This document shows positions 8,914 through 32,283 of a stretch of DNA of 51,594 bases, piece by piece. The position numbers and the translations under genes were made by a program. This DNA is from a virus, in the IMG/VR virus record IMGVR_UViG_3300042483_000235, positions 1 through 51,594 of that record. The stretch is one strand, 5' to 3'. The notes beneath the pieces were generated by a model that was given only the letters and a program-made list of their open reading frames with translations, was not told the DNA's origin and made no database searches. Numbering within the stretch: position 1 is the first letter of the stretch; every line of letters starts with the position of its first letter.

Positions 8914-8942
8914 ATTATACAGTTATTTAGTTCTCTTGTCAA
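8914..8942 (-). promoter_or_regulatory. Sigma70 promoter for the tRNA region
   Basis: TTGACA, 17-bp spacer, TATAAT, all consensus, at the head of the minus-strand tRNA region. The AT-rich stretch 8943-9066 upstream has no gene. Confidence 0.85.
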
Positions 8943-9066
8943 CCTCTATTTGCCGTTTTGGCAAAATAAATTTTGACGCCTTCCTAACCAACTGTATGTA
9001 TTGTAATGTCTTTTTATTTATATGTCAACAAAAATATGATCTGATTATGTGGCTTTTTTACCACAT

Positions 9067-9321
9067 TCACTCAAATGTTGTTTCACCCGTGATCAAAATG
9101 TGTTTGCCGATTTCAAACAGACCCACACTTCCAGGGAGATCCATTGCTGCCACGTGTATCTGGACTTCTCCGCCGTCGTCGATTGAGCAGGCCACAAATT
9201 CTTTTATGCTATCGCTTTCTATTTCCGCTTTGATGAATTCAATCACTGCTAACATGGCTTTCTTTTGTTCTTGCTGTTGAATATCTTCTTTGCGTTTGCT
9301 GTTGATGCTGATGACTTCCAT
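9067..9321 (-). CDS. Hypothetical phage protein (84 aa)
   Basis: Starts MEVISINSKRKEDIQQQEQ; an N-terminal charged helix is followed by FIKAEIES, then CSIDDGGEVQIHVAAMD and GKHILITGETTFE. Looks like a helix plus small beta sheet. The start at 9321 falls 7 nt after the clpP stop, so it is probably co-transcribed with clpP. Function unknown. Confidence 0.72.
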   Translation of the reverse strand: MEVISINSKRKEDIQQQEQKKAMLAVIEFIKAEIESDSIKEFVACSIDDGGEVQIHVAAMDLPGSVGLFEIGKHILITGETTFE

Positions 9322-15978: not shown

Positions 15979-18039
15979 TTACTTCGAGGTAGCTTTGTAG
16001 GTACCGTCCCAATCTTTTGGTAAATCTCTAGAGCGCATATCAGCTATACGCTCAATCCACAGTTCATAGTAGTGATCCATATTGCCGTCAAATTCACCAG
16101 TGAGTGTCTTGCATAATTCTATAGCGTCATCCCACTTTTGCTGCTTATAATAGGTCAACATACCGTTATGCATATCACGGGCAGTGTTCCATTTAACTGC
16201 TACAGTTTCATCAGGCATGTAGAATACAGTAAAAATATTAACACCAATGGTCTTGCCCTTGACTGCAATACAGTCTAAAGGAATAGTAAAGTACTGATCG
16301 TTAACACGCTTCTCTGTGCTTTCACTGATAATGATTAGTTGTCCATAGTTCTTGGTTTGACTTTCTAGTCGTGCTGTTAAACTAACTGAGTCACCTAGTA
16401 CATCATATCCAAATCGGTCTTTACTACCAATGTTACCGATTAGTGTAGGACCGGTGTTAATACCCAAACCCATACCTACACGTGGCTTTCCTTCTCGTTC
16501 AAGTTCGATGTTAAACAGTTCAACAGCATGAATCATTTCTAGTCCAGTGCGGACAGCAGCGTGAGCATGATCAGGATCTTGAAGCTCTTGGATCGGAGCA
16601 CCATGAACGTGCAGACTAGCATCACCAATGAACTTGATCAAGCATCCATTGTTGCGCAGTATAGGTTCAGCAATGGCAGTCATATAACGATTCATTGTTT
16701 GTGTAAATGCCACAACGTCATCACCATAGGTTTCACCTAGGCCAGTAAAGTTGCGCATGTCACTCATGATGATGGTAAGGTCTTTCTTCTCTCCGCCTAG
16801 TTTAATAAAGCTAGGATCTTTTTGTAGGCGTTCAACAATTACAGGATTTACATAGCTGCCAAACTGTTTCTTAATCTGTGACTTTTGCAAGTACTCGCTT
16901 AAAAATTTGACACTATAAGCGTGAATGTATACCAGACTACAGCCAACAACAAACCAAGTGGCGTCCAATAGGATTCTGGAGTTTTCATATAGATAAGATA
17001 TAGCGAAATGACTGCCGCCGAGAAAGACAACAACAGGAATAAAAGCATAGGTCCACCTTGATAAAAATAGTACTAGTAATCCAGCGGCCAGCAAGGCAAT
17101 GATCTCAGCTTGGTCAGCCCAACCTGGACGCTGTATGTTGCTCTGCGTCATCATAGTGCCAATGACTGCACCTTGTAGGTATTGTGGCCATACTTCACCT
17201 TTGGCTGTACTAACAGGGTTTACCAGACCAGCAGCACTGAGTCCAACAATAACAATACCGCCGTCAAATGATTCAGGCAACTGCATGTAACTGTATTCTC
17301 TAGGCGTTGCTGACCAATCAATCCAAACACGACCTTCGTTGTCCGTTGGTACTTTGCCAAACTTAGGAACACGCACAGCTTCTACACCCATGTCACCAAT
17401 CTTGACTTGGAACTTGGGATCCTTGGCAGCCACACGCAGTGTCTCTAATGCTAGACTAGGATGTAGTTTTTCTTGACTTAGTATGACCATGGGCATACGA
17501 CGAACAACACCGTCTATCTCTGGAAATGTATTAACAATACCAACACCTGCTGCTAGACTTTCTTGCGGCTCCACATTACTAATCAATCCTGGATACTCAA
17601 CAACTAGTCCCTTAGGATCCATGCCTATTACTTGTGCAGGTGTTCTATGAGTAATATTCTTTTGACGTTCACTTCCTAGTGCTGGTAATACCACAGGATA
17701 CTTCTTAAGTGTTTCACCTAGTACGGCATCCTTGCCAAAACGATCTTTCTCTGGCATTAGCACGTTAAACACAACCAGTCCGGCATCACGTCTATAAATC
17801 TCTTTAATGATATCAGCATACATGTCTCTAGGGAAAGGAAACTGTCCTAGCTTGTCTAGAGTTGCTTCATCAATGTTGACTGTATAAACAGGAACATCGT
17901 TGGCAGGTTGACTAGTTACTAATGTGTCAAAATAACGTAGTCTTACGCTTTCAATAAAACTAGGATCTACAAGACGGATGCCTAATACTAATGCTAGAGT
18001 GACCAATGCGGTCCAAGGGTTTAATAGTAGCTTTTTCAT
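15979..18039 (-). CDS. CHASE2-domain adenylate/guanylate cyclase (686 aa)
   Basis: Membrane-bound class III nucleotide cyclase. An N-terminal membrane span (WTALVTLALVLGIRLV) precedes an extracytoplasmic CHASE2-type sensor (DVPVYTVNIDEATLDKLG, FPRDMYADIIKEI) up to about residue 300, then about three membrane spans, then the catalytic domain from about 430. Metal-binding Asp candidates are in MSDMRNFTG and FIGDASL; DVLGDSVSLTARLE is the substrate loop, with Ser where Asn is usual in many homologues. Start at 18039 because the 14 codons upstream overlap the divergent riboswitch leader. A TAAATA box lies 5 nt before the ATG. Product (cAMP or cGMP) unknown. Confidence 0.88.
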   Translation of the reverse strand: MKKLLLNPWTALVTLALVLGIRLVDPSFIESVRLRYFDTLVTSQPANDVPVYTVNIDEATLDKLGQFPFPRDMYADIIKEIYRRDAGLVVFNVLMPEKDRFGKDAVLGETLKKYPVVLPALGSERQKNITHRTPAQVIGMDPKGLVVEYPGLISNVEPQESLAAGVGIVNTFPEIDGVVRRMPMVILSQEKLHPSLALETLRVAAKDPKFQVKIGDMGVEAVRVPKFGKVPTDNEGRVWIDWSATPREYSYMQLPESFDGGIVIVGLSAAGLVNPVSTAKGEVWPQYLQGAVIGTMMTQSNIQRPGWADQAEIIALLAAGLLVLFLSRWTYAFIPVVVFLGGSHFAISYLYENSRILLDATWFVVGCSLVYIHAYSVKFLSEYLQKSQIKKQFGSYVNPVIVERLQKDPSFIKLGGEKKDLTIIMSDMRNFTGLGETYGDDVVAFTQTMNRYMTAIAEPILRNNGCLIKFIGDASLHVHGAPIQELQDPDHAHAAVRTGLEMIHAVELFNIELEREGKPRVGMGLGINTGPTLIGNIGSKDRFGYDVLGDSVSLTARLESQTKNYGQLIIISESTEKRVNDQYFTIPLDCIAVKGKTIGVNIFTVFYMPDETVAVKWNTARDMHNGMLTYYKQQKWDDAIELCKTLTGEFDGNMDHYYELWIERIADMRSRDLPKDWDGTYKATSK

Positions 18040-18167: not shown

Positions 18168-18827
18168 ATGGAACTCTTTACGATCCAGGCCCTTTGGGCA
18201 TTTCTCGCTATCATTTTGATAGACATTGTATTAGCCGGTGATAACGCTCTTGTTATCGGAATGGCCGCTAACAAATTACCAGAACATCTACGCAAACGAG
18301 CAATTCTTTGGGGAACATTTGGTGCTATTGCTATCCGCTTTATTTCTGTAGCCGCACTGACCTACCTATTAATGATTCCAGGGCTACGCTTAATAGGCGG
18401 TGCTGCGCTATTGTGGATTGGCTGGAAGTTGGTTTTTGATGAAGGTGATCACGACATTGAAGCCAAAGACACATTCTGGGGTGCCATTAGTACTATTGTA
18501 GTCGCTGACGCAGTTATGGGCATAGACAATGCACTTGGTATTGCCGCGGCCGCAAATGGAAATTTTGTGTTAGTCATTGCTGGCCTGTTGATCAGTGTAC
18601 CTATTATATTATTCGGTGCTGGATTAGTCAGCAAGATACTTGAGAAGTATCCCAACAGTGTGTTCGTAGGCAGCTTTGTATTATTTGCTGTGGCATTTCA
18701 AATGGCTATCAAAGAACCTCTATTGCAAGATTGGCTAGAACCTTTAGCCGGTTGGGTTAAGACTGTGCTACCTTGGTGTGCTTCGATGGTAATAACAGCA
18801 GTGCAGTATAAGAAAGCTAGAATGTAA
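18168..18827 (+). CDS. terC: TerC/YjbE-family membrane protein, likely Mn2+ exporter (219 aa)
   Basis: Seven or so membrane spans with the family motifs LIDIVLAGDNALVIGMA (residues 17-33) and ADAVMGIDNALGIAAA in the second repeat; the paired Asp-Asn residues are the proposed metal-binding sites. This family (YjbE/TerC) is associated with manganese efflux. AAGGAAGAT precedes the ATG. The riboswitch candidate upstream and the terminator downstream make it a self-contained regulated unit, divergent from the cyclase gene. Confidence 0.9.
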   Translation: MELFTIQALWAFLAIILIDIVLAGDNALVIGMAANKLPEHLRKRAILWGTFGAIAIRFISVAALTYLLMIPGLRLIGGAALLWIGWKLVFDEGDHDIEAKDTFWGAISTIVVADAVMGIDNALGIAAAANGNFVLVIAGLLISVPIILFGAGLVSKILEKYPNSVFVGSFVLFAVAFQMAIKEPLLQDWLEPLAGWVKTVLPWCASMVITAVQYKKARM

Positions 18828-18850
18828 AAAAGCCCCGGAAGGGGCTTTTT
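18827..18850. terminator. Bidirectional intrinsic terminator
   Basis: AAAAAGCCCC-GGAA-GGGGCTTTTT between the convergent terC and the gene at 18856-19341; U-runs form on both strands. Confidence 0.9.
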
Positions 18851-18855
18851 ATTGA

Positions 18856-19341
18856 TTACGATCTTACTAACATAGCAAAACTAAAGGCAAACGCAGGTAT
18901 TGCTAATGCTGAAAAACTTATAAAAATTAGTGCTCTATCTATTAAATCTGATTTGGCCTTTATCCTAGCGTTTGCTAAGTCTGCTTCTAGTTTAGCACGT
19001 TCTTTATACATACGTACACGCTCAGCCATCATTTGTTCCCAAACATCACTATTACCACTATATATCAACAGTTCTTTGAGTTGTTTTTCTGCGTCTCGCA
19101 AGGCTTTACTCTGCATGGCAATTTCTATTGACATGGCTCTGATCTGTCCGTCTGTGAGAATCTTTTTGCTGGTTTGTGCGGCTGCATTAGCACTGTGAAT
19201 TTTATCGCTGTTTTCAAAGAACTTGGCAAACTGTCCGTAAAGGCTGTTGACATCCTTGCCTAAGGCAATGGCCTTTTTAATATAACCAACTGATTGTTGT
19301 GCGGCTGTAAAAGCAATGCCAAGGGTAATAGGATCAATCAT
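18856..19341 (-). CDS. Conserved phage protein with C-terminal membrane span (161 aa)
   Basis: Starts MIDPITLGIAFTAAQQSVGY, then GKDVNSLYGQFAKFFENSD, a long charged helical middle (about residues 60-130) and a C-terminal membrane helix (ALIFISFSALAIPAFAFSFA). I recognise this layout from T4-like phages of aquatic bacteria; function unknown. Start overlaps the preceding stop (ATGA). Last gene of the curli-like operon. Confidence 0.78.
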   Translation of the reverse strand: MIDPITLGIAFTAAQQSVGYIKKAIALGKDVNSLYGQFAKFFENSDKIHSANAAAQTSKKILTDGQIRAMSIEIAMQSKALRDAEKQLKELLIYSGNSDVWEQMMAERVRMYKERAKLEADLANARIKAKSDLIDRALIFISFSALAIPAFAFSFAMLVRS

Positions 19342-19496
19342 GTTTTCTTAGGATCCTTATCTTTGGGTGGCGGCTTAGTCCATTCTAAGCATACAACTCG
19401 ACGATTATAAACATCCCCGGTCCAAGTCCATTTTACACAACGAGGCTCCTGGGCTAGCATGCCTGCCAACATCAATGAGCCTATGGCGTTGAACAT
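19338..19496 (-). CDS. Small secreted Cys-containing protein (52 aa)
   Basis: MFNAIGSLMLAGMLAQ forms a short signal or anchor; then PRCVKWTWTGDVYNRRVVC with two Cys 17 residues apart able to form a disulfide, and a Pro/Lys tail. Its stop overlaps the next start (ATGA), so it is real and coupled. The pattern occurs next to the 161-aa membrane protein family in phages as I recall it. Function unknown. Confidence 0.7.
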   Translation of the reverse strand: MFNAIGSLMLAGMLAQEPRCVKWTWTGDVYNRRVVCLEWTKPPPKDKDPKKT

Positions 19497-19497
19497 A

Positions 19498-21381
19498 CTA
19501 TGGTCCCGTGCCTTGTGTTACTGAAACACTACATCCAGATAATGTAGCACACTGTTGTGTAATATTAATGTTTTGTGCTGTGGTGCCTTGTTGTATTAGA
19601 TTAACTGTGCTAGAGCCACCAGCATTGGTCAAGTTGATAGTGGCTTTGTGACTGCCTGCGTCCTTTTGACTGGCAGTAACATTGTGCCCGTTGCCTGTTA
19701 GGCTTAGATCAAAGTAACTGCCTGATCCTTGTTGTGTAACATCAAATACATTAGTATTACCGTTGACAACGCCAAAGAATGTTTTCTCACCGTTGCCCAT
19801 TTGCTTCAGTGTTCCTTGATTGCTATTACCAGTGACATCAACATAGGCAAAGTGCCCACTTGCAGTTCCGCCGTCATTGCTTTGTTTTAGACTCAACGTG
19901 TTTGTGCTGCCGTTGATATTTAGACCCATATAGTGTCCACCACTCTCTTGTCCGTCTTGTAAGCCAGTTGTAGGATTACGTGCTTGCCATAAGGTAATGT
20001 TATTTGTGTTGCCTGTGACGCTGAATTCAAACAAGTTCTTACCCAGGGTATCACCTTGTTTGATGTTTAAGGTATTGTTGTCACCGTCTATGACAGCGTA
20101 GTCAGTGCCACCTAGGCCTGAGATCTTATTATAGTTGCCTGTTTGTTCAATGGTTATTGCATTACCGCTACTGCCAATCTTTTGATCAAGATATAAACTG
20201 TTGCCCAATGTAATGTTACTAACACGACTCTTAGCAGAATTCTTCTGCGCTGTTTGATTTACAGTTATGTCGCTAGTAGAAGGCCAAGTAGGAGCACAGT
20301 CGGCGCAAACGCTGCCTGCTTGACCTGGATTAGCAGGAGTTCCGCCTGAACCAGTATCAGTACTAGTAACGCCATCATTTAAATCATAGTAGTAGGTAAC
20401 TTCAGCAATTTGCATACTGTCGCAGTTTAACCCACAGAATTCCCCTGCTTTAGTTGTTGGAAACAATATGAAGTAGTAGATATAGGCAGTAGTATTGCCT
20501 GTCGCTATTTCGGGACTAGTCCAAAATCTCGACTCGCTTAAACTTAAACTATCTTGTTTAATCAGTGTCCAGTTGGCACCGTTATTACTACCATACAGTT
20601 TATAGCTAGTAGGATCACGGCCACTAAAATCATTAGCAGTTGTAATAGTAAATTTCTGAACCACTCGACCTTGACTTAGTTTGACAGTTACACCTGCATT
20701 CTTTTTGTCAAAATTTAGATATTTGGTATTAACATTGCCGTCAAAGGCCTGTGTTGCACCTTCTCCAAACGGACTGTTATTGCTAGTGGGAAATATAGTG
20801 CTGATAACCACAGGTGTGCTATTAGTTCTAATCAATTTCCAGTCAGCCGGGGCACTACTCGGTGTAGTTGTAGCAGTTTGTCCTGCGGTCAACGGTACAG
20901 TAGAATAGTTAGCGTTGGCATAAGTGTTGGCCTGTGCTACTGTGGGGTTAAGTGTGCCAGTCCATGAAACACCGTTAGTGTTATTCATACCACTTGATCC
21001 ACTGAATAACTGTCCTGTGTTATTGTCACTGCCCACAAAGAAGAAATAGTCAGGACCCATGTTGACAATCTTACCGGTGCCAATAGTACCTGCTAGTGTG
21101 CCATTGCTATTGTAAACTTTACCTTCGTAAGGGTAACTACCATTACCAGTTGCTGCAAATTGAACATATTGTCCTGCTCGCCAACTCCAGGTTCCGTTAA
21201 ACCAAGGAATCTTATACATAGTACCCGGTTGTTTACTGTAGATTTGGCAGGTAGTAGTATTGAGACAGGCATTGACATTCCACTGACTGTCGGCAATTTG
21301 GCTTTGTCCAAACTTGATATCAGTTAGGTCAGCAAATGCATTAGAGCATACGAACAGTAAAGCTAATAATATCTTTTTCAT
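19498..21381 (-). CDS. Large curlin-repeat/discoidin-like secreted fibre protein (627 aa)
   Basis: A signal peptide (residues 1-17, MKKILLALLFVCSNAFA) precedes a beta-rich N-terminal region, an F5/8 type C (discoidin)-like middle at about 180-335 (FDGNVNTKYLNF, SYKLYGSNNGANWTLI), then C-terminal curlin-like repeats at about 375-620 such as NAITIEQTGNYNKI and TNVFDVTQQGSG. Probably exported through CsgG and assembled as an amyloid-like fibre or surface adhesin. ATG overlaps the stop of the fecR-like gene by 4 nt. The domain combination is unusual for curli. Confidence 0.75.
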   Translation of the reverse strand: MKKILLALLFVCSNAFADLTDIKFGQSQIADSQWNVNACLNTTTCQIYSKQPGTMYKIPWFNGTWSWRAGQYVQFAATGNGSYPYEGKVYNSNGTLAGTIGTGKIVNMGPDYFFFVGSDNNTGQLFSGSSGMNNTNGVSWTGTLNPTVAQANTYANANYSTVPLTAGQTATTTPSSAPADWKLIRTNSTPVVISTIFPTSNNSPFGEGATQAFDGNVNTKYLNFDKKNAGVTVKLSQGRVVQKFTITTANDFSGRDPTSYKLYGSNNGANWTLIKQDSLSLSESRFWTSPEIATGNTTAYIYYFILFPTTKAGEFCGLNCDSMQIAEVTYYYDLNDGVTSTDTGSGGTPANPGQAGSVCADCAPTWPSTSDITVNQTAQKNSAKSRVSNITLGNSLYLDQKIGSSGNAITIEQTGNYNKISGLGGTDYAVIDGDNNTLNIKQGDTLGKNLFEFSVTGNTNNITLWQARNPTTGLQDGQESGGHYMGLNINGSTNTLSLKQSNDGGTASGHFAYVDVTGNSNQGTLKQMGNGEKTFFGVVNGNTNVFDVTQQGSGSYFDLSLTGNGHNVTASQKDAGSHKATINLTNAGGSSTVNLIQQGTTAQNINITQQCATLSGCSVSVTQGTGP

Positions 21382-22556
21382 CTAAAGTTCTGATTGATAA
21401 CAATCTGTCCCACGGCTTTACCACTGCTGAAGTTCCAACTGTTGGTCTGCATGTCCTGTGTAACAATCACCTGCACTTTGGTATCTAAAGGCATAACAAC
21501 ATTAGCATAGTTGCGACTGTTAGGGCTTAGGCTTTCAAACATCCAACCTATTTGTTGTGTTTCGCTTTTATCTTTAAACAATTTCTTAACGTAGGGATTT
21601 TCAGTTTCGCTTACTGCGGCCACTTCAGTGACTAAGGCATCTTTGTTAGCGGCAGTATCTAATCCTACCTTAGTAGCAGTGTCTAAATTCTCATCGCCTT
21701 CATTGGCACTACGTCCTTGCTTATAAGACTTGTTGCTTCCACCTTTTTCACCTTTACTAGCCACTTGTTGTTTTTCGCCATCTTTAGCATCATCTTTGTC
21801 ATCTTTGTCTTTGTCGTCTTTTTTGCCGTCTTTCTTCGCATCGCCTGTCTTTTCAGCAGCAGCACGAGCAGCAGCGATCACGCTGACTCCAGTAGTAGTT
21901 CTTGGAGGATTAACCATTAGGTTGTTGCCAATGGCCATGCCGTTGAGAGCAACAATAACAGCAGGACTAGGAATACCATTTAATGTTTCAACTAAGGTAG
22001 CTTGATAAGGACGATTAAGTTTAACTATGCCTGCCGGTGTCTCTACATCAATAGCGCCACTGCCGCAGGTAAGTCCTTTTAAGTTTACGTTTTGTTCTAT
22101 TTCACAGGTTGGCATCAACATGATCATACTAGCGCCTGTTTCACTAACAGCCATGACAAAGTCTGTGCCACGAACAGCAATGGCCGCAGTAGGTGTGTTG
22201 ATTTTTACATTCTTGGGGTCTTTGGCAATACTGCCTGATACATAGCGCACAGTACCTGCGGCAGCTTTAAGTCCTAGTTTTCCGGCACCGCTTTTAGGAT
22301 CATATACAAAATCGTCAATAATAAGGCTACTCGACTCAGTAACAGTAACGTTCGTATCGTCTTTAAAAACGATCTTGACTTTTCCATTCTTAGTTTCAAT
22401 CTTGTCATTGGTTTTGATTTCTGTGCCTTTGACAATTTGAATTGTATCTTTACCACGCTTGATAATAGCAGTACCGGACGATTCAGTAACCGATCCGATA
22501 TCTGCCCATGCCGACACGGCTGTGATCAAGCCTATGATAAGAGCAGCAACTCTCAT
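21378..22556 (-). CDS. Secreted FecR-domain protein (392 aa)
   Basis: Signal peptide at about residues 1-18. A FecR-type domain spans about 20-150 (GTEIKTNDKIETKNGKVKI, then TPTAAIAVRGTDFVMAVSE). A Lys/Asp-rich low-complexity linker follows at about 240-275, then a C-terminal domain. FecR domains of this sort occur in surface or sensory proteins and next to secreted polymers. Not the membrane anti-sigma type, since no central membrane span is seen. Member of the curli-like operon. Confidence 0.82.
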   Translation of the reverse strand: MRVAALIIGLITAVSAWADIGSVTESSGTAIIKRGKDTIQIVKGTEIKTNDKIETKNGKVKIVFKDDTNVTVTESSSLIIDDFVYDPKSGAGKLGLKAAAGTVRYVSGSIAKDPKNVKINTPTAAIAVRGTDFVMAVSETGASMIMLMPTCEIEQNVNLKGLTCGSGAIDVETPAGIVKLNRPYQATLVETLNGIPSPAVIVALNGMAIGNNLMVNPPRTTTGVSVIAAARAAAEKTGDAKKDGKKDDKDKDDKDDAKDGEKQQVASKGEKGGSNKSYKQGRSANEGDENLDTATKVGLDTAANKDALVTEVAAVSETENPYVKKLFKDKSETQQIGWMFESLSPNSRNYANVVMPLDTKVQVIVTQDMQTNSWNFSSGKAVGQIVINQNFR

Positions 22557-22565
22557 TGCCGTTCC

Positions 22566-23354
22566 TTAGTTCTTCTGTGTTATATTGAATATACCGCTGT
22601 TGGATATACTTTTGATATTAACCACGTTGTCAATAGTTCCAGTTTGGCTGATAGTAAACTTGTTGCTGTTACCAGCCAAGTCAACCCAAACACTACTACC
22701 AGCTGCACCAGTTGAACGCTGACTGATGTTAAACTCGTTAGTATCACCTACCACTTTGATTGTGTCAGTGTGCTTGCCACCAATAGCATCAATGAAGAAC
22801 TTGTTGGTGTTGCCCGTTACATCAATAGCAGCTTTCAAGTCGTCGCCTGTGCCACGATATTGAATTTCATTGCTGTTGCCTGTGAACTTCATGTTTAGGT
22901 CAGCTGCTTTACATCCCGTTAGTGCTGTAGTTCCATCGCTGGCATTGCCATAACCGCAGGCCACGTCAGCTTTGTTAGTGTTACCCAACTGCTGAATAGT
23001 CACGGTTGCGCCAACACCTGTGCCTGTGGTGTCGTTCTTTACTTCTAGGTTGATTTCGTTGCTGGCACCAACTTGGTTAGTAACAATCTTCTGATCAATG
23101 CCACGTAGGTATACTGGACGAGCAGCTGATCCTGCTTTGTTACCTGATCCATTTTGTGTCATATTGACATTAGGATTGTCACCGCTTTGATCGATAAAGA
23201 TGCGGTTAGTTGTGGCAATGGCTAGTGAGGCTGTTGCGTTAGGGCTAACAGTTACCATTGTTGGGATTGTGGCTGCACTTGGTGCAGTTACAGCAGTCTG
23301 GGCCATTACTGGAAATGCTGCTGCTAATAATATTGTTATAATTGTTTGTTTCAT
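22566..23354 (-). CDS. Curlin-like amyloid subunit (262 aa)
   Basis: Signal peptide at about 1-18 (MKQTIITILLAAAFPVMA). The mature part contains repeated Asn/Gln/Gly strands with curlin spacing, for example NRIFIDQSGDNPNVNMTQNG, TNEFNISQRS and SNKFTISQTG. This is the CsgA/CsgB-type S-x5-Q-x-G-x-x-N-x5-Q logic, with degenerate repeats. It lies directly downstream of csgG. Expected to be secreted unfolded and polymerise at the cell or virion surface. Confidence 0.8.
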   Translation of the reverse strand: MKQTIITILLAAAFPVMAQTAVTAPSAATIPTMVTVSPNATASLAIATTNRIFIDQSGDNPNVNMTQNGSGNKAGSAARPVYLRGIDQKIVTNQVGASNEINLEVKNDTTGTGVGATVTIQQLGNTNKADVACGYGNASDGTTALTGCKAADLNMKFTGNSNEIQYRGTGDDLKAAIDVTGNTNKFFIDAIGGKHTDTIKVVGDTNEFNISQRSTGAAGSSVWVDLAGNSNKFTISQTGTIDNVVNIKSISNSGIFNITQKN

Positions 23355-23382
23355 TTTTTGCTCCTAACCTTGTGGGTTATTT

Positions 23383-24321
23383 TTACTTCCAGAACTGGAT
23401 TCGTGTCCAGATACTCTTCTCTTTGCTTCCTTCAACACTTTTTCCGCTATCGGACTGCTGTGGTGAGGATGCAGTTTTGGCTGCGTCTTTGGTCTTGGTT
23501 TGTGCTTGAACCAACTCATTGGACTTCTCCTTGAATTGCCACAGGCCACCACGCTCTCCCTTTTTAATCAACTCAATAACCGCTGTTTCGATTGCTGAAC
23601 GTAGGGCATAGTTACCTGGCTCGTTAAATGTTTGGCTTGAATCAAATTCAAATGCCTGTGTTGCTTGGTTGAAAAACTTCAACGCAGTGGCACCGTCGGC
23701 GGTGCTGAGCAAGTTCTTTTCCACTGTAACAGTGGTTAGTACTTCTCCAGTTTGAACACTGACCAAACGTAGGCTGATCACAACCACGTCTTGAGTATAG
23801 GCGGTAGATGTTCCAATACCTAACCAACGAGCACCTGTGCCGCCTGTTAGTGTATTGCTGTTATAATCAATAATGCCACCTTCTAGAATAACACCAGCCA
23901 TTTGCAATGGTGGTAACGGTTTGGCATTAGCGCCTTCGTAGATCTCACGTGTCTGTTTGATCATCTGACGCTCTTTTAACAAGTTGTCCAAGCCAACACG
24001 CTCAACAACTGTGAACCATTGACGATTACCAACTTCTTGTAAACTCTTCATTAGGTATGCTTCAGCACCCTGGGTGACTGCTGTTGAAAACAAGCTGAGT
24101 GTTGAACTTGGCTTTCGCTGTCCTGTTAGGTCTTTGAAACCATACACTGCCACTGTCACTGCCGGACCTGCTGGTGCAGGAACATTGGCAAAACTCTTGT
24201 TGATTGTGTCTGTAACTGTAGCTTCTTCTTTGATTTGTGTACTGCCCCATGGACGTACGGTTGAACATCCAGCTAGGGCTACTACGGCTAATGTGATTAA
24301 GGATAATTTAATTGCTTTCAT
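23383..24321 (-). CDS. csgG: Curli secretion channel lipoprotein CsgG
   Basis: CsgG forms a nonameric outer-membrane pore for curli subunits. A lipoprotein signal is present (LAVVALAGCSTVR, Cys19 as acylation site). The family core includes VAVYGFKDLTGQRKPS, STAVTQGAEAYLMKSLQ, WFTVVERVGLDNLLKER, and YTQDVVVISLRLVSVQTGE. At 312 aa it is slightly longer than E. coli CsgG because of a charged C-terminal tail. AAGGAG precedes the ATG. csgF is immediately upstream and curlin-like genes downstream. Confidence 0.92.
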   Translation of the reverse strand: MKAIKLSLITLAVVALAGCSTVRPWGSTQIKEEATVTDTINKSFANVPAPAGPAVTVAVYGFKDLTGQRKPSSTLSLFSTAVTQGAEAYLMKSLQEVGNRQWFTVVERVGLDNLLKERQMIKQTREIYEGANAKPLPPLQMAGVILEGGIIDYNSNTLTGGTGARWLGIGTSTAYTQDVVVISLRLVSVQTGEVLTTVTVEKNLLSTADGATALKFFNQATQAFEFDSSQTFNEPGNYALRSAIETAVIELIKKGERGGLWQFKEKSNELVQAQTKTKDAAKTASSPQQSDSGKSVEGSKEKSIWTRIQFWK

Positions 24322-24330
24322 ATTTTCTCC

Positions 24331-24813
24331 TTAAAAACTAAAACTAGCAATTGGAACTATAACTCGAGTAACAGTACCTTTGGCATCTACTACTGTCAGT
24401 GTAACTTTGTCGTTGGCCTTGGCCCAGGTAACTGTATTACCATCTAGAGCAAAGTTACCTGTTGTTGGATTCACGCAACCTGGAATCGCCGTGCCATCTG
24501 CGGCAGCGCATTTGTTTGTGAATAGGTTGTTGCTTAACTGTGTTGCAAGTTGAGCATATACTTGACTTTGAAATAGACTCATGAATCTATTCAACGGGGT
24601 GTTTAGCAGTTCAGCCTCAGCTTTGGCAATGGCTGCTTTTTTGTCTGCTTCGATAGCATCACGTCGTGACTTTTCAATGCTGTCAATGGTCAACACATGA
24701 CTGCTAAATCCAATGCCACTAAAGGCTGGATTTTTAAATTGTTGTACTAACTCTGCTTGTGCAGTCGTGGATAATGCCAGCATCATCCCTAGTGTCACTA
24801 AGGTTTTCTTCAT
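24331..24813 (-). CDS. csgF: Curli assembly factor CsgF
   Basis: CsgF caps the CsgG pore and couples secretion to nucleation. A signal peptide (MKKTLVTLGMMLALSTTAQA) is followed by the diagnostic mature N-terminus ELVQQFKNPAFSGIGF, the segment that inserts into CsgG. 160 aa, close to the family length. First gene of the operon; a TAAATA box lies 24 nt upstream of the start with GGGAG between. Confidence 0.9.
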   Translation of the reverse strand: MKKTLVTLGMMLALSTTAQAELVQQFKNPAFSGIGFSSHVLTIDSIEKSRRDAIEADKKAAIAKAEAELLNTPLNRFMSLFQSQVYAQLATQLSNNLFTNKCAAADGTAIPGCVNPTTGNFALDGNTVTWAKANDKVTLTVVDAKGTVTRVIVPIASFSF

Positions 24814-24837
24814 CGGTTCGCTCCCGGGTTTGTAATG

Positions 24838-24843
24838 TATTTA
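24838..24843 (-). promoter_or_regulatory. T4-late-like promoter of the curli-like operon
   Basis: GGTAAATAC located 24 nt before the csgF ATG, followed by a GGGAG ribosome site. It would drive csgF to the gene at 18856. Confidence 0.55.
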
Positions 24844-24876
24844 CCGGGAGTTGTGCTAGAATAAACTATGAGTTAT

Positions 24877-25245
24877 CTAAAGACAGATGACAGCCGCAAT
24901 GGCCAAGTAAGATGCTTGATGCGCTAGTTGATCTAGGCCGAATTGATTCCAAAATAAGGGTTTAGTATTGTCTTTGCAACCGTATTTTACCTTGGTGTAA
25001 TCTATTACATAATGATATACGCCTTCAATAACTGCTACAGATATCATTGTAACAGCACTGATTGGATGAAAGAAACTAAAAATCAACAATAATACTAATG
25101 TTCCCCAGACATGATCTAGCGTATGACTTATGCCAACAGGATCTAGCCACACACCTTTTTTAACGGTCTGCATATAGGTCTGTATCTTAAAATCAGCATA
25201 CCAGTGCTTGATTTGAAACAGTAGTAAAAGTGCAAGAATTTCCAT
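24877..25245 (-). CDS. DUF3307-like membrane protein (122 aa)
   Basis: Several hydrophobic segments with conserved polar residues: FQIKHWYADFKIQTYMQ at the start, a central HTLDHVWG, EGVYHYVIDYTK, and FGLDQLAHQASYL near the end. This His/Asp arrangement matches the DUF3307 family of unknown function. A perfect TATAAATA box lies 6 nt before the ATG. Confidence 0.75.
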   Translation of the reverse strand: MEILALLLLFQIKHWYADFKIQTYMQTVKKGVWLDPVGISHTLDHVWGTLVLLLIFSFFHPISAVTMISVAVIEGVYHYVIDYTKVKYGCKDNTKPLFWNQFGLDQLAHQASYLAIAAVICL

Positions 25246-25268: not shown

Positions 25269-25949
25269 TTATTTCAATTCAGGAAAAAGACAGTCCTGGA
25301 TAAACATTTGGACATCTTCCTCGCTTAAACCTAAACTGACCATTACTTTAGGAGTATGTGGGTTTTGCTTTTGGTTTTGAGCATAGTAATTCTGCTGATC
25401 TTTGGTGCTTTCTGCAGTATTATTAGTTTCTCCCACACATTCTGTGTAGTGATTAACTAGTATATGTGCTAGACTTGCAATCTGTGCTAATTCGCTTTCG
25501 TCGCTGACATTGCCCGCAGCAATCATATGCGGACTAAAAATACGCTCTGCCCATTCGGGAAGTTTACGTGGTTTATTCCAGTCGTATCGGCCAACTTCTT
25601 CAGCAAAGTATTCAATCATAGGATGATCAAAATCACCTGTAGGACTATAATCAATAAAGCAACCTGTGATCTTATTCTTACCTGCTATTACGTCAAAGCC
25701 AAAAATAGGAGCAGGGTTGTGTGTATGTGGAAACACACAGCAGTGCATCATCCATAACCCTTTACTTTCTCGAGCATCTACAACATCAATGTGAGCACGA
25801 CGATAACGATCGCTAGTCCAGATGCGATTAACCCAACCTGGCTGATTAAATCTTTCCATCCCAGATTCATTAACCTCTTGACCCGTGCGGCTGAAGTTAT
25901 CTTCCAATAGATGTTGGATCTCAACTAACTTTTCCCAAACTTGACTCAT
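25269..25949 (-). CDS. Ferredoxin-dependent bilin reductase (PcyX/PcyA-like, 226 aa)
   Basis: Reduces biliverdin to a phycobilin using ferredoxin. Family features: HCCVFPHTHNPAPIFGFDVI, AGKNKITGCFIDYSPTG, and the C-terminal PEWAERIFSPHMIAAGN helix region, in the order seen in PcyA/PebS-type enzymes. Phage enzymes of this group (PebS, PcyX) are known. Its start overlaps the heme oxygenase stop (TGATG), so substrate supply and use are translationally coupled. The exact bilin product cannot be deduced by eye. Confidence 0.85.
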   Translation of the reverse strand: MSQVWEKLVEIQHLLEDNFSRTGQEVNESGMERFNQPGWVNRIWTSDRYRRAHIDVVDARESKGLWMMHCCVFPHTHNPAPIFGFDVIAGKNKITGCFIDYSPTGDFDHPMIEYFAEEVGRYDWNKPRKLPEWAERIFSPHMIAAGNVSDESELAQIASLAHILVNHYTECVGETNNTAESTKDQQNYYAQNQKQNPHTPKVMVSLGLSEEDVQMFIQDCLFPELK

Positions 25950-26494
25950 CAGTGCCTTTCATTGTTTAGAGCCTTCATTATCTTGATAGCCCATTCAAAG
26001 GCTATTCGAGCTTCGGGTCCTAGGTCATCAGTGAGTTCAGCACGGATGGCTGCTTTTAAATTATGTGCATCGTCAAAGTCATAGAATCTTCCTTGACCCG
26101 GCGCTTTCTTTTTAATAATTTGTCCGCCAAACAAGTCTCCCATATGACGACAATACATATGAGCTTTTATCAAATGTTTTCTTTCAGGATTCATATTGAG
26201 TTCTAAAAGATATTGATAGTACTCAATGGTAACCGGCAACCAAAACAAGTTGTGATGTGGACCAACTAGTTCTATACAATCTTGATAGATCTTGTGTGTT
26301 CGTTCAATATCTTTTAGATTGGTCAACATTCCTTGACTTTTACAGGCAGTTTCGATACCGTTATAGACCAGCACCATTTGCCAAAGATAATTAGCATATT
26401 CTTCTGCGGTAAAAGACCCGCTGACCAATTTCGTTGCGAAGATTGTTTTTTCTGCTTCTTCGTGCAGATCGTGTGTGATTTCTCGTAGACTCAT
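25949..26494 (-). CDS. Heme oxygenase (biliverdin-forming, 181 aa)
   Basis: Opens heme to biliverdin, CO and iron. A proximal His candidate is in THDLHEEAEK (His11). The distal helix signature is YCRHMGDLFGGQIIKK (Gly119-Asp120 and Gly123-Gly124). Also WQMVLVYNGIE. Shorter than plant or cyanobacterial enzymes but normal for phage forms. Immediately upstream of the bilin reductase. A TAAATA box lies 8 nt before the ATG. Confidence 0.9.
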   Translation of the reverse strand: MSLREITHDLHEEAEKTIFATKLVSGSFTAEEYANYLWQMVLVYNGIETACKSQGMLTNLKDIERTHKIYQDCIELVGPHHNLFWLPVTIEYYQYLLELNMNPERKHLIKAHMYCRHMGDLFGGQIIKKKAPGQGRFYDFDDAHNLKAAIRAELTDDLGPEARIAFEWAIKIMKALNNERH

Positions 26495-26508: not shown

Positions 26509-26775
26509 ATTCTTTAATTTGAACTTCAAAAGAAAAATCAGGAGGTCTTTCTCCTGATCTAATTTAACAGTATATATCTGTTCATTTTGCCTTTGAAAAT
26601 GCCATCTTTGGCCTAATGGGCCAAACAAACTTTCTAGATATGCTATCAAGGTTCTTTTTCCTTTTTTCCCAGAAGTTTGATTGCCGCTTCTACAATCAAA
26701 AAGAGTTAGCCAATATTGAAATCTCTTTGTGCCAAGATCAGTGTATTTTATAACTCTGATATCTTCTTGATTCAT
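26506..26775 (-). CDS. FxLKW-family small protein (89 aa)
   Basis: Ends YTVKLDQEKDLLIFLLKFKL, a diverged version of the FxLKW ending found in proteins at 11837, 12114, 12706 and 13773. N-terminal part has LTLFDCRSG and a basic GKKGKRTLIAYLES segment. Overlaps the clpS stop by 4 nt (ATGA). Unknown function; placed here far from its relatives. Confidence 0.68.
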   Translation of the reverse strand: MNQEDIRVIKYTDLGTKRFQYWLTLFDCRSGNQTSGKKGKRTLIAYLESLFGPLGQRWHFQRQNEQIYTVKLDQEKDLLIFLLKFKLKN

Positions 26776-27074
26776 GCATCTGGTTCAATGGTTACCACTA
26801 AAGGAAATCCATTTTGTCTTGCAGCCTGAGTAGAATCGATGCCTTTTTGTTCGGCGATTTCGTGTGTATAGATTCCTGCTACCGCACTACCCGTGTTGTG
26901 TATTTCCAAGGTAATGTCTTTGGCTCGATCCTGTGCGTGTTTGAATATTTCAGTTAACACTTCGATGACAAATTCCATAGGAGTTTTATCATCGTTCAGC
27001 AATACAACTTTCCATAGCTTTGGTGGCTGTAAGGAAACTGTTATTTTTTCATCAATTTTTAAATCAGTGGACAT
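26772..27074 (-). CDS. clpS: ClpS adaptor protein (100 aa)
   Basis: ClpS delivers N-degron substrates to ClpAP. The signature LWKVVLLNDDKTPMEFVIEV with the LNDD-TPMEF substrate pocket is intact, followed by AGIYTHEIAEQKG and PLVVTIEPDA, in normal order and length. Ribosome site GGAGC. Together with phage ClpP (9329-9922) it suggests control of proteolysis, though no ClpA is seen in the window. Confidence 0.92.
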   Translation of the reverse strand: MSTDLKIDEKITVSLQPPKLWKVVLLNDDKTPMEFVIEVLTEIFKHAQDRAKDITLEIHNTGSAVAGIYTHEIAEQKGIDSTQAARQNGFPLVVTIEPDA

Positions 27075-27119: not shown

Positions 27120-27557
27120 TTACTTAATTTCCACAATATCAATGATACGTGGTTTTTCGGATTCCGGAACGTTACGGAAAAGTTGAATTCTCAACATACC
27201 GTTTCTAATCTCGGCTACCTTAACTTCCATGTGCTCTGCTAAAGTAAAAGTTTTTTCAAAGTCTCGTGTAGCAAGTCCACGATGAAGGTACATGGCATCT
27301 CCTAAAGACATTTCTTTAGATTCGCCAAATACGCTCAATTGATTGCGCTCGACTTCTACTCGAATTTCTTCCTTCTCAAATCCAGTAATTGCAATTTGAA
27401 TTTCGTATTGGTCTTCATTCCATTTGAGGATATTAAATGGAGGATAGTTGGTAGACACTTGGTTGGCAAATCTGCGTTCCATTTGGTCAAACATTGTGTC
27501 AAATCCCACAAGTGCTCTGCTCAGTGTGTCTAATCTCGATAGTTGATTGTTGTTCAT
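27120..27557 (-). CDS. Small heat-shock protein, Hsp20/alpha-crystallin family (145 aa)
   Basis: ATP-independent holdase. The alpha-crystallin domain spans about 35-130: YEIQIAITGFEKEEIRVEVE, HRGLATRDFEKTFTLAEHME, and RNGMLRIQLFRNVPE; the C-terminal IxI-like motif is PRIIDIVEI. The start at 27557 has AAGGAGA upstream; the 22-nt leader is almost identical to that of dnaK. Confidence 0.92.
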   Translation of the reverse strand: MNNNQLSRLDTLSRALVGFDTMFDQMERRFANQVSTNYPPFNILKWNEDQYEIQIAITGFEKEEIRVEVERNQLSVFGESKEMSLGDAMYLHRGLATRDFEKTFTLAEHMEVKVAEIRNGMLRIQLFRNVPESEKPRIIDIVEIK

Positions 27558-27616: not shown

Positions 27617-29518
27617 TTAGCTAAACTTAGTTTCAGTAAACGTAGCGTCTACCACATTGTCATCTGCTTTGGCTTCTGGTTGAGGCGCCTGAGCTGCCTG
27701 TTCCTTGGCCTGCTTTTTATCCAATAATGTTTTCATTGCCGGATAAACCTTGTTGAGTTCTTCAGTGATCTTTTCAGGGTCTGTGCCTTTGGTAGCTTCT
27801 TCTACTGCTTTGATCACTGTTTCTAACTCAGTGATTTCTGTTTCAGAAAGTTCTGAACGGAACTCTTCTAGATCTTTACGTACTTCGTGCATCTGTGCTT
27901 CAGCACCATTACGTGTTTCAATCAGTGTACGTGCTTTCTTATCTGCTTCTGCATTGACTTCAGCATCTTGAACCATACGCTCGATTTCTTCTTTGCTCAA
28001 TCCACTATCTGATTTAATAGTGATTTTGTTTTCTTTGCCGGTGTTTTTGTCTTTGGCGCTGACGTGCATGATACCGTTGGCGTCAATGTCAAAACTCACT
28101 TCAATCTGAGGTTGTCCTCTGCGTCCTGGTGCAATACCTTCTAGGTTAAACTCGCCTAGTAACTTGTTATGTTGTACGAGTTCGCGTTCACCTTGAAACG
28201 CTTTGATGGTCACAGCAGGCTGGTTGTCTTCTGCTGTAGAGAATGTTTGACTAGCTTTAGTTGGGATAGTTGTATTCTTTTGCACCAGCTTGGTCATAAT
28301 GCCACCCATGGTCTCAATGCCTAGACTCAACGGTGTAACATCCAACAACAAAACGTCATTGCGATCACCACCTAGAACAGCACCTTGAATGGCGGCGCCT
28401 GCGGCCACAGCTTCGTCGGGGTTAACATCTTTACGGGGTGCTTTGCCAAACAGTTGCTCAACAGCTTCTTGTACTTTAGGCATACGTGTTTGACCACCAA
28501 CAAGAATAACTTCGTCGATGTCAGTGGCGGTAATGCCTGCATCTTTCATAGCTGTGCGGCAAGGTGCTAGACTACGTTCGATTAGATCAGCTACAAGACT
28601 TTCTAGTTTTGCACGGGTGATCTTTACCACTAGATGTTTAGGACCACTAGCATCAGCTGTAACGTATGGAAGATTGACTTCTGTTTGTGCAGAACTCGAT
28701 AATTCAATCTTGGCTTTTTCAGCAGCATCTTTTAAACGCTGTAGGGCAAGCATATCTTTCTTGAGATCGATTCCGGAATCTTTCTTGAATTCATCAACTA
28801 GGAATTCCATAATGCGTTGGTCAAAATCTTCACCACCTAGAAAGGTGTCACCATTGGTGCTTAGTACTTCGATTTGTTTGTCGCCTTCCACGTTCGCGAT
28901 CTCAATGATCGATACGTCGAAAGTACCGCCACCAAGATCATAAACAGCAATCTTCCTGTCAGCTTTATCAGACTTATCAACGCCATAACTAAGAGCTGCC
29001 GCAGTAGGCTCGTTAATAATACGCAGTACCTCCAAGCCGGCAATCTGTCCAGCATCCTTGGTAGCTTGTCTTTGGCTGTCGTTAAAGTACGCAGGAACTG
29101 TGATAACTGCTTGAGTAACTTCATGACCTAAATAATCCTCCGCTGTCTTTTTCATTTTACGCAGAACTTCTGCTGAAATCTGCGGAGGAGCAAGACGTTG
29201 TTCTCCTGCCTTGACCCAAGCATCACCATTACCGTTTTGGATAATTTCATAAGGCATCAGGTCGATGTCCTTTTGAACTGCATCCTCAGTGAATTTACGA
29301 CCAATCAAACGCTTGGCAGCATAGATGGTGTTTTTGGGATTTGTTACTGCCTGGCGTTTTGCGCTGGCACCAACTAGAATTTCATTGTTGGTGTAGGCAA
29401 CCACGCTGGGTGTAGTTCTAGCACCTTCTGAATTCTCAATAACTTTGGGAATTCCATTTTCGACGATAGCCACGCAAGAATTCGTGGTGCCGAGGTCAAT
29501 ACCGATGATCTTAGACAT
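27617..29518 (-). CDS. dnaK: Hsp70 chaperone DnaK (633 aa)
   Basis: Full-length Hsp70. ATPase domain begins [20 protein letters not shown], with [38 protein letters not shown] and [14 protein letters not shown]; substrate domain contains [14 protein letters not shown]; the lid region is complete. The tail ends [12 protein letters not shown] rather than the usual acidic EExK ending. Sequence character is proteobacterial. Complete dnaK in a phage is rare; no dnaJ or grpE is in the window, so host co-chaperones may be used. AAGGAGAT precedes the ATG. Confidence 0.97.
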
Positions 29519-30463: not shown

Positions 30464-30836
30464 AAGTTCCTATTACGGTTTCTAATAATTTGATGCAGTC
30501 ATCAATACTATATATAGCCTTTGTATTGACCTTAGCTAGGTTTTTTAGTATCCCAAAATAAGATGAATTACGTTGTGCAGCCATATAACCAGTTATTAAC
30601 TGATTTTCGTGTTCCGCATTAAAGATTATATGGTGACTCTTGTGTTTTTTATCAAACAACCAATCTGGACTACTGTTGTTCCAGATATAAAGAACCACCA
30701 TTGGTAAATTATTGATTTTCGACAATGCTGTAGATAATAATTGTGTTTGGTCAGCGGTAAGATTGACCAGCAACAATCTCACACCATCGTAGGCTACGTC
30801 ATCGGGATCGGTGACCAAAATCACTTTACTGTTCAT
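30450..30836 (-). CDS. Hypothetical phage protein (128 aa)
   Basis: [20 protein letters not shown] followed by [19 protein letters not shown] gives alternating strands and helices, possibly a Rossmann-like or toprim-sized alpha/beta fold. No catalytic motif is clear. Overlaps both the upstream membrane-protein gene and rpsU, indicating coupling. Confidence 0.65.
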
Positions 30837-32283
30837 CTTTTTTTGCTTTCACACGTTGCCAAAGAGTGGACTTAGTCTGTTCTGCATTTTGAACGTATTC
30901 TACACTTCCTTGGTTTTCTTGATCTGCTGTGTCCCTTGTTTCTCCAACCAGGTCACTGTCTTTTTTTTTAGATTCGTCTGCGAGAACACGTTGTTCTTCT
31001 ATCCATTTGGCAGCTTCGCCAGCAGCATCATCGTGATCAGGCTGCGGCCTTAGATAAGATTGCCAGGGTAGTTCTTTGATAACATTACGTTCAAAAAGTT
31101 TTCTCTGAAGTTTCAAACTGCTGTCAGGATGATCTGCTTTCCAACGGGTCATTGCAGATGCTTCACTTTCAGATGCTTGCGCCAATTCATCTTCATCAGT
31201 GTGCTCTTCTTCTGTCGGTTCCTCAGTTTTATGGACCTGTGGACCCACTCGAAATTCTTCCGGTACTTGACTTACCCACGGTTTTAAAAGATAAGGATGT
31301 TTTTCAAAAATACCCAATTCTCTGTCTTCGACTGATAGTGTTGGTCCTTGAACCGGGAATGGCCATAATGGGCTGCCGGCCGGAATAAAAGGTTCTGCTT
31401 TTATTTTGACATCTTGCTCTGCGGCTTCTTGATCTAATTGACGAGCACGTTCTTTGCCTTGTTCGAACCATTCTTTTACTGCTAACTCGTCGTCTTCTTC
31501 TCGAGCAGTTCGGAACCATTGAAAACTGTATTGACTGGCCAACAACAAGATCACTGCCAGAGGATCAAATACCGCAACAATAATAATGATTACCCAGGTG
31601 ACAGCTTTTTCTAATAGATTGGCATCTGGATTGCTTCCGTAAATAAAAGAAGCTATGTATTTTATTGGTCCAACCTCGGCCTCCACTTTTCGAACCTCTG
31701 CCGCAATAGGTGCTCTCTCACTGTTAAGTGTAGAGATGGTCTTTTGCGATTGAGCAATTTCTTGAGTAATACGGCCGCGATCTTTTTGCTGGGCTTTACG
31801 AATTGCGACTGCTTTTTCGGCACCCTTTTCATCTGTTGAGCGACCCATAACTTGGTCCACTGCCTCATCAAGTTGTTTGAGAACTTTACGATTTGCATCT
31901 ATATTTTCTTTTTCTGTTTTGATTTTCTCATCATAGACGGCAATCCTACTTTGTACGTCACCGCTTACAAGACTTTGATCACTATGTGCTTTTGATAGGA
32001 ATCCAAAGATACCCATTGATGTTATCACCATTAGGATAGCAATGGCCGCAATTAGATACGACCTAATAAAAATAGGAGCACGGGCCCAATTTATCTTGAG
32101 CCATACGGTGGCAATTAATTTGCTGACCTCTAACACAACACCCATTACAATAATAGGTATAACTGCGGCCGCAAAGATTGAAACAAGGCCAGCCACGCTG
32201 TACCAAATTGCCACAGCAGATATAGTTAGTCCGCTTAGAAGAGCCAACCAGGCTATGATTTTATCACTTAGATTTATTTTCAT
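30826..32283 (-). CDS. Multi-span membrane protein with long coiled coil (485 aa)
   Basis: Three N-terminal membrane spans (about 10-100), a long charged coiled coil (about 105-210, SRIAVYDEKIKTEKENIDAN and onward), a fourth span (AVTWVIIIIVAVFDPLAVIL) and a cytoplasmic acidic C-terminal half. This layout resembles DUF4407-like proteins and a T4-like phage family. Role unknown; an inner-membrane remodelling or exclusion role is possible. TAAATA box 8 nt before the ATG. Confidence 0.78.
   Translation of the reverse strand: MKINLSDKIIAWLALLSGLTISAVAIWYSVAGLVSIFAAAVIPIIVMGVVLEVSKLIATVWLKINWARAPIFIRSYLIAAIAILMVITSMGIFGFLSKAHSDQSLVSGDVQSRIAVYDEKIKTEKENIDANRKVLKQLDEAVDQVMGRSTDEKGAEKAVAIRKAQQKDRGRITQEIAQSQKTISTLNSERAPIAAEVRKVEAEVGPIKYIASFIYGSNPDANLLEKAVTWVIIIIVAVFDPLAVILLLASQYSFQWFRTAREEDDELAVKEWFEQGKERARQLDQEAAEQDVKIKAEPFIPAGSPLWPFPVQGPTLSVEDRELGIFEKHPYLLKPWVSQVPEEFRVGPQVHKTEEPTEEEHTDEDELAQASESEASAMTRWKADHPDSSLKLQRKLFERNVIKELPWQSYLRPQPDHDDAAGEAAKWIEEQRVLADESKKKDSDLVGETRDTADQENQGSVEYVQNAEQTKSTLWQRVKAKKDEQ

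What the first reader, a model, noticed from the sequence alone, without database searches (positions are those of the whole stretch)
18856..24843. Curli-like operon (csgF, csgG, curlin repeats, FecR, discoidin-curlin fibre) behind a late-type promoter
csgG/csgF homologues are, as I recall, known from some marine phages, where a pore or lysis role was suggested. Here the same operon also has a curlin-like subunit, a FecR-domain protein and a 627-aa fibre combining a discoidin-like domain with curlin repeats, all secreted. That is nearly a full secretion-and-assembly system lacking only CsgE-like and regulator genes. It could build amyloid on infected cells (aggregation, protection, superinfection exclusion) or make outer-membrane holes at lysis.
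Basis: partly seen in the sequence, partly recalled or inferred. Interest (0 to 1): 0.88.

Follow-up and report, generated by a model that had tools for sequence, protein, structure and literature searches.

The report
Late-gated, lectin-bearing phage curli operon
A virus of bacteria carries a nearly complete kit for exporting and assembling curli, the sticky protein fibres of bacterial biofilms; such kits were already known in related phages, but here the second fibre protein carries swappable sugar-binding domains, and a covarying hairpin at the first gene probably keeps the kit silent until late in infection.

Summary
Confirmed: 24813-18856 (minus strand) encodes CsgF, CsgG, a curlin-repeat protein, a FecR-domain protein and a discoidin-plus-curlin fibre, four with Sec signal peptides and CsgG with a lipobox. 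About 50 viral loci keep the order under purifying selection. The gene set is not new: Pelagibacter phage HTVC008M, Methylophilales phage Melnitz and uncultivated pelagiphages have it (PMC9599517). The same CsgF-CsgG-curlin-curlin-FecR-cyclase block lies in Caulobacteraceae MAG contigs, one clearly chromosomal.

Two features appear new. (1) The fibre's curlin C-terminus is shared by nearly all relatives, while its N-terminal domains are exchanged: F5/8C (CBM32-like lectin) in 14 of 41, PA14 in 2. (2) A TAAATA late motif just before csgF (44/49 loci) lies in an inverted repeat whose arms covary (0 of 20,000 permutations) and usually covers the Shine-Dalgarno, as at T4 gene e: read-through RNA silenced, late RNA translated.

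Best explanation: a late-expressed secretion system that coats the dying cell in lectin-bearing curlin fibres, promoting adhesion or aggregation near progeny. Late gating argues against superinfection exclusion; retained subunits argue against a lysis-only pore. Amyloid formation and function are untested. New variant of a known kind.

The parts
24877..25245 (-). DUF3307 small membrane protein, the gene directly upstream of csgF in almost all relatives
   Evidence: Pfam PF11750 8e-9; synteny; TAAATA motif before it in 41 of 44 relatives. Not shown to belong to curli function.
24821..24850 (-). csgF leader hairpin: arms 24850-24844 (CTCCCGG) and 24827-24821 (CCGGGAG, containing the Shine-Dalgarno GGGAG)
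   Evidence: MFE -11.9 kcal/mol, shuffle z -2.37; covarying arms in 36 distinct leaders, 0 of 20000 permutations
24838..24843 (-). TAAATA late-type promoter motif inside the hairpin; transcription start inferred about 24832
   Evidence: Conserved 44/49 before csgF, 0 before csgG, FecR, fibre; enriched before capsid-region genes
24331..24813 (-). CsgF, 160 aa, signal peptide; mature N-terminus ELVQQFKNPAFSG resembles the CsgG-plugging segment of E. coli CsgF (comparison from memory)
   Evidence: Pfam PF10614 1.9e-11; PHROG 35372; dN/dS 0.086
23383..24321 (-). CsgG, 312 aa, outer-membrane lipoprotein pore (lipobox LAGC19), C-terminal K/S-rich tail
   Evidence: Pfam 4.5e-51; E. coli CsgG structure 6lqh E 5e-45; Cys19 invariant; Y51 replaced by S, N55 by L, F56 kept
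22566..23354 (-). Curlin-repeat subunit, 262 aa, signal peptide
   Evidence: Pfam PF07012; invariant Q-x-G-x-x-N columns in 43 relatives; model pLDDT 84.8
21378..22556 (-). Secreted FecR-domain protein, 392 aa; overlaps the fibre start by 4 bases
   Evidence: Pfam PF04773 5.1e-10; dN/dS 0.083
19498..21381 (-). Lectin-curlin fibre, 627 aa: signal peptide, N-terminal domain (to about 170), F5/8C CBM32-like domain (about 200-335), curlin domain (about 364-623, C611 and C617 nearly invariant)
   Evidence: Pfam; domain exchange; Foldseek CBM32; curlin-part dN/dS 0.083
19338..19496 (-). 52-aa ORF, co-directional, present in a minority of relatives
18856..19341 (-). 161-aa protein with C-terminal hydrophobic segment (PHROG 32327), last gene of the run
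18826..18850 (-). Terminator-like hairpin plus T-run (AAAAAGCCCCTTCCGGGGCTTTTTT) at the end of the operon
   Evidence: read from sequence
15979..18039 (-). CHASE2-adenylate/guanylate cyclase, last member of the curli module; in this window separated from it by an opposite-strand TerC gene (18168-18827)
   Evidence: Pfam CHASE2 7.4e-37, Guanylate_cyc 5e-18; PHROG 35576 3e-201; directly follows the fibre in most relatives

Best explanation
A phage-borne type VIII (curli) secretion module of alphaproteobacterial type. Shown by sequence: CsgG has a lipoprotein signal and belongs to the pore family, CsgF keeps its family's conserved features, and there are two secreted curlin-repeat proteins, one of them fused to a CBM32-like lectin. 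Shown statistically: a late-type promoter motif lies inside a covarying hairpin that usually covers the csgF Shine-Dalgarno. Inferred: RNA reading in from upstream is not translated at csgF; late RNA starting inside the hairpin loses the 5' arm and is translated. The curlin subunit and the lectin-curlin fibre are then exported through CsgG-CsgF and polymerise on the infected cell. The lectin domain makes the coat adhere to other cells, particles or sugars, so that burst progeny meet hosts. The FecR protein and the CHASE2 cyclase are inferred to be the module's envelope-to-cytoplasm signalling pair inherited from the bacterial operon.
For: Families and signals. Conserved order in about 50 viral contigs. 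Purifying selection on every gene, dN/dS 0.08-0.13, including both curlin domains. Curlin motif columns invariant and model confident. Curlin C-terminus kept in nearly all relatives while N-terminal domains swap among F5/8C, PA14 and unnamed domains; discoidin domain matches galactose-binding CBM32. Late motif before csgF in 44/49, enriched in the capsid region. Hairpin arms covary: z -9.7, 0/20000; arms strictly outside the motif z 8.0 vs reversed-arm control 2.8; not found at structural or cyclase TAAATA sites. T4 precedent for genes e, soc, 49, I-TevI, segB (PMC3014915, PMC2988022). Same block on an evidently chromosomal Caulobacteraceae contig (L067).
Against: No experiment. The Foldseek search found no significant PDB match for the curlin model (best E 0.095). 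The fibre model is only moderate (pLDDT 67.6). A folded lectin must cross CsgG unfolded, which is untested for such a large fusion. Melnitz infections showed no clumping in cytograms or TEM (PMC9004378), although the Melnitz fibre aligns with the window's only over the curlin part. The SD is paired in only 24 of 36 leaders. Host unknown.
Confidence: 0.55

Rival explanations
1. Pore for lysis: CsgG-CsgF is a timed outer-membrane hole (pinholin/spanin-like) that helps burst the cell; the other genes are passengers.
For: Proposed for Melnitz (PMC9004378). The late-gated leader is the same design as the T4 lysozyme gene e, used there to prevent premature lysis. CsgG constriction residues differ from E. 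coli.
Against: Both curlin proteins, FecR and the cyclase are conserved under strong purifying selection, which a pore-only role does not need. CsgG sits in the outer membrane, not the inner. The window has its own cell-wall hydrolase 8 kb away, outside the operon (PF07486, 32684-33016). The same design also controls non-lysis genes (soc, 49, I-TevI).
Confidence: 0.12
2. Superinfection exclusion or shielding: the fibre coat stops other phages or grazers reaching the infected cell.
For: Suggested for pelagiphages (PMC9599517); a surface amyloid coat would fit.
Against: Late-only motif plus hairpin leaves little time for exclusion. A lectin that varies among close relatives fits target binding better than shielding.
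Confidence: 0.13
3. Sensing or uptake: the CsgG pore admits nutrients, with FecR and the CHASE2 cyclase regulating host metabolism.
For: Suggested in PMC7029224 and PMC9599517. The cyclase and FecR are frequent partners.
Against: Does not explain CsgF, the curlin repeats or the lectin domains. Cyclases of the window's type carry Ser where the transition-state Asn normally lies (motif assignment from memory), so activity is uncertain.
Confidence: 0.08
4. Virion part: the lectin-curlin fibre decorates released virions as an accessory adsorption fibre.
For: Late expression; tail-fibre-like domain shuffling; weak PHROG tail hit for the discoidin domain (6e-5).
Against: All subunits carry Sec signal peptides and lie with a dedicated outer-membrane exporter, so they leave the cytoplasm where virions assemble.
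Confidence: 0.07

Closest known systems
Type VIII secretion (curli) module of pelagiphages (PMC9599517; HTVC008M gp014-gp019, Melnitz _99 to _104)
   Same: CsgF-CsgG-curlin-FecR-second curlin-cyclase in the same order; no CsgE
   Different: CsgG 39-44% identical; DUF3307 instead of a histidine kinase upstream; second curlin carries an F5/8C lectin and an extra N-terminal domain; csgF leader hairpin; nearest relatives include T4-like contigs of 250-383 kb
Chromosomal curli cluster of Caulobacteraceae MAG (L067; a second MAG, L069, has the same gene order)
   Same: CsgF-CsgG-curlin-curlin-FecR-CHASE2 cyclase; L067 flanked by ordinary chromosomal genes
   Different: Both curlins lie together before FecR; no lectin fusion; cyclase 38% identical
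E. coli csgBAC-csgDEFG
   Same: CsgG, CsgF, curlin-repeat subunits
   Different: No CsgE (tested), no CsgB/C/D named by the scans; extra FecR, cyclase and lectin-curlin fibre; constriction loop changed
T4 gene e / soc / 49 / I-TevI late-promoter hairpins (PMC3014915, PMC2988022)
   Same: Late promoter lies in the 5' arm or loop of a hairpin that hides the SD
   Different: Found here on a secretion operon; shown by covariation only, not by transcript mapping

Membership tests
Type VIII (curli) secretion system | CsgG lipoprotein pore | tested here: met
   PF03783 4.5e-51; E. coli CsgG 5e-45; Cys19 invariant
Type VIII (curli) secretion system | CsgF | tested here: met
   PF10614 1.9e-11
Type VIII (curli) secretion system | Secreted subunits with curlin repeats (Q-x-G-x-x-N) | tested here: met
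   PF07012 on 22566-23354; 17/41 fibres; motif counts vs shuffles
Type VIII (curli) secretion system | CsgE gatekeeper | tested here: not met
   PF10627 in none of 12 records, E. coli control positive; also absent from G001, which has a curli block, so not obligatory for this type. The system is therefore filed as the CsgE-less alphaproteobacterial/pelagiphage type, not the E. coli type.
Type VIII (curli) secretion system | E. coli constriction Y51-N55-F56 | tested here: inconclusive
   Only F56 kept; a chromosomal alphaproteobacterial CsgG (L067) also lacks Y51
Type VIII (curli) secretion system | Amyloid fibre formation | not testable with these tools
   Needs ThT/Congo red, EM, fibre diffraction
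Pelagiphage T8SS module (PMC9599517) | Order CsgF-CsgG-curlin-FecR-curlin-AC | tested here: met
   in the window a TerC gene and two small genes intervene before AC
Pelagiphage T8SS module (PMC9599517) | Histidine kinase before csgF | tested here: not met
   Upstream gene is DUF3307; next genes are bilin reductase and heme oxygenase
T4-type late-promoter RBS hairpin | Late motif inside a conserved hairpin covering the SD | tested here: met
   33/36 leaders span the motif, SD paired in 24/36, covariation 0/20000
T4-type late-promoter RBS hairpin | Late 5' end inside the hairpin; early RNA not translated | not testable with these tools
   Needs primer extension or RNA-seq and a reporter
Classical FecR regulator | Cytoplasmic anti-sigma part plus TM helix before the FecR domain | tested here: not met
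   Only PF04773 matches; protein starts with a signal peptide-like segment

The most novel reading that the evidence does not exclude
Phages build, only at the end of infection, an amyloid coat tipped or studded with interchangeable lectins, whose expression is locked by a promoter-in-hairpin switch, so that the remains of the lysed cell act as a sticky trap that brings new hosts to the progeny. The phage also brings its own DnaK (27617-29518), which could keep curlin export-competent, as E. coli DnaK does for CsgA (PMC6123696).
Probability: 0.3. Interest if true: 0.85.

Novelty: new variant of a known kind. Interest (0 to 1): 0.62.

Why it matters
The role of curli genes in phages has been debated (sibling capture, lysis pore, exclusion, uptake) with little discriminating evidence. 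The lectin fusion and the late-only leader give two testable handles: late gating speaks against exclusion and early uptake, and exchangeable sugar-binding domains speak for adhesion. If true, phages would use a secreted functional amyloid to organise cells around the site of lysis. [quoted passage not shown]

Tried and rejected
TATAAATA as a stand-alone signal: count in the window is at chance; replaced by cross-genome conservation. The palindrome at the DUF3307 promoter: folds in the window, but its arms outside the motif do not covary, so not claimed. FecR-CHASE2 cyclase as a general bacterial pair: only 2 of 30 alphaproteobacterial CHASE2 loci had a FecR motif beside them, so the pairing is claimed only for curli clusters. 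Foldseek of the curlin model against PDB: nothing significant. CsgF against PDB sequences: no true match. Curlin protein against named phages by tblastn: no match, although HTVC008M and Melnitz carry remote homologues found through synteny. TAAATA directly before gp23 in large relatives: absent, probably because gp23 lies inside a run of genes; the wider capsid region was used instead. DnaK as an obligatory curli partner: only 6 of 19 curli phage records have it. A late hairpin before the window's cell-wall hydrolase: none seen.

Full report
Observation. The window is a 51,594-base virus record. On the minus strand, from 24813 down to 18856, lie CsgF, CsgG, a 262-aa curlin-repeat protein, a 392-aa FecR-domain protein, a 627-aa fibre and two small ORFs, ending at a terminator-like hairpin. 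Pfam supports each named family. CsgF, curlin, FecR and fibre begin with Sec signal peptides, and CsgG with a lipobox whose Cys19 is invariant in 23 aligned proteins. Genes are closely spaced or overlap, as in one operon.

Is it functional and conserved? A scan of viral contigs with CsgG gave 58 loci. About 50 of them keep the order DUF3307-CsgF-CsgG-curlin-FecR-fibre, usually followed by a CHASE2-cyclase. Median dN/dS among close relatives is 0.08-0.13 for every gene, including the curlin subunit (0.098) and the fibre's curlin part (0.083). The invariant columns of the curlin protein are those of curlin repeats (Q67 G69 N72; Q94 G96 N99; Q122 G124 N127). AlphaFold2 gives regular strand-turn-strand units with pLDDT above 90 over most of the repeat region; Foldseek finds no significant PDB match, so the solenoid is supported by sequence and regularity, not by a solved relative.

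The fibre. Its C-terminal curlin domain (about 364-623) is found in nearly all relatives with a complete fibre. Its N-terminal part is exchanged: some relatives share residues 1-170 but not the middle, others only 170-613, others only the curlin part, and in some the 19-169 block sits behind a different domain. F5/8C is found in 14 of 41 fibres, PA14 in 2, and many have no named domain. The window's F5/8C domain matches CBM32 galactose-binding modules by structure. The marine Melnitz and HTVC008M fibres align with the window's only over the curlin part. I found no mention of lectin, discoidin or carbohydrate-binding domains in the main text of the paper on pelagiphage T8SS. Exchange of sugar-binding domains on a conserved fibre base is what is expected of an adhesin.

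Timing. The exact string TATAAATA is at chance frequency in the window. Across relatives a TAAATA motif lies 8-45 bases before csgF in 44 of 49 loci and before DUF3307 in 41 of 44, but never before csgG, FecR or fibre, against 0.02 expected. The same motif precedes 16 of 50 genes of the capsid region in two T4-like relatives of 250 and 383 kb, so it is most likely the group's late promoter. In front of csgF it lies inside an inverted repeat: in the window CTCCCGG (24850-24844), TAAATA (24843-24838), CCGGGAG (24827-24821), the 3' arm holding the Shine-Dalgarno. Among 36 distinct leaders 33 have a stem spanning the motif and 24 pair the Shine-Dalgarno. Each left arm pairs better with its own right arm than with other loci's (z -9.7, 0 of 20,000 permutations). 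With arms strictly outside the motif z is 8.0, against 2.8 for a reversed-arm composition control. TAAATA sites before structural genes or the cyclase show none of this. RNA starting inside the repeat loses the stable structure (-11.9 to -3.7 kcal/mol). T4 genes e, soc, 49, I-TevI and segB are controlled this way. The inference is that the operon is translated only late.

Origin and relatives. The full module is known in HTVC008M, Melnitz and uncultivated pelagiphages. The Melnitz paper states that csgA and csgB are missing, yet its record annotates two curlin-repeat proteins. In bacterial genomes the same block including FecR and cyclase lies in two Caulobacteraceae MAG contigs (L067, L069); L067 is flanked by ordinary chromosomal genes. 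[quoted passage not shown] they are part of at least this type. CsgE is absent from all 12 records tested, including the Caulobacteraceae genome.

Mechanism and rivals. I favour late assembly of a lectin-bearing curlin coat for adhesion or aggregation (0.55). A lysis pore (0.12) shares the late gating but leaves the subunits unexplained, and the window has a separate cell-wall hydrolase. Superinfection exclusion (0.13) is poorly served by late expression. Uptake/sensing (0.08) and virion decoration (0.07) are less likely. Uncertain: amyloid formation, export of a folded-domain fusion, cyclase activity (Ser replaces the usual Asn in the NxxxR motif; motif assignment from memory), the host, and the habitat, which the tools do not give.

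Novelty. The gene set is known; the lectin-curlin modularity and the promoter-in-hairpin control are, within the papers I could search, not described. Hence: new variant of a known kind.

Noticed in passing
window 27617-29518, 27120-27554, 26772-27074: Full-length DnaK (HSP70, E 3e-254), HSP20 and ClpS genes lie in a row upstream of the curli operon and keep that position in about half of the relatives; E. coli DnaK is needed for CsgA export (PMC6123696), so a functional link is possible. DnaK found in only 6 of 19 curli phage records.
   Followed up: partly
window 25269-25949 and 25949-26494: Ferredoxin-dependent bilin reductase and heme oxygenase pair (phage bilin pathway) between the chaperones and DUF3307, syntenic in relatives.
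   Followed up: no
window 40446-40835: Permuted (two-piece) alphaproteobacterial-type tmRNA by Rfam (RF04321, RF01849); Melnitz also carries a tmRNA.
   Followed up: no
window 1-8269: 27 tRNA genes, almost a full set, all within the first 8.3 kb on one strand.
   Followed up: no
window 15979-18039; L008, L016, L035 vs L010, L022, L028: Related phages carry two different versions of the cyclase catalytic half; the window type has D and S (YDVLGDSVSL) where the other has T and N (YTCLGDAVNL), suggesting domain replacement and possibly altered activity.
   Followed up: partly
window 18168-18827: TerC-family membrane protein on the opposite strand inserted between the operon and its cyclase; not seen there in most relatives.
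   Followed up: no
L038 CsgG 8001-9101: A phage CsgG with a C-terminal bacterial SH3 domain (PF08239, 4.9e-8), perhaps a peptidoglycan anchor.
   Followed up: no
G009 (L044/L049), G010 (L052), G008 (L022): Curli-bearing contigs of 383, 327 and 250 kb with T4-type gp23 capsid genes: the relatives include jumbo phages.
   Followed up: partly
window 30826-32283: 485-aa protein with a sub-threshold Pfam match to tetraspanins (2e-5, below cut-off), probably only a multi-TM similarity.
   Followed up: no
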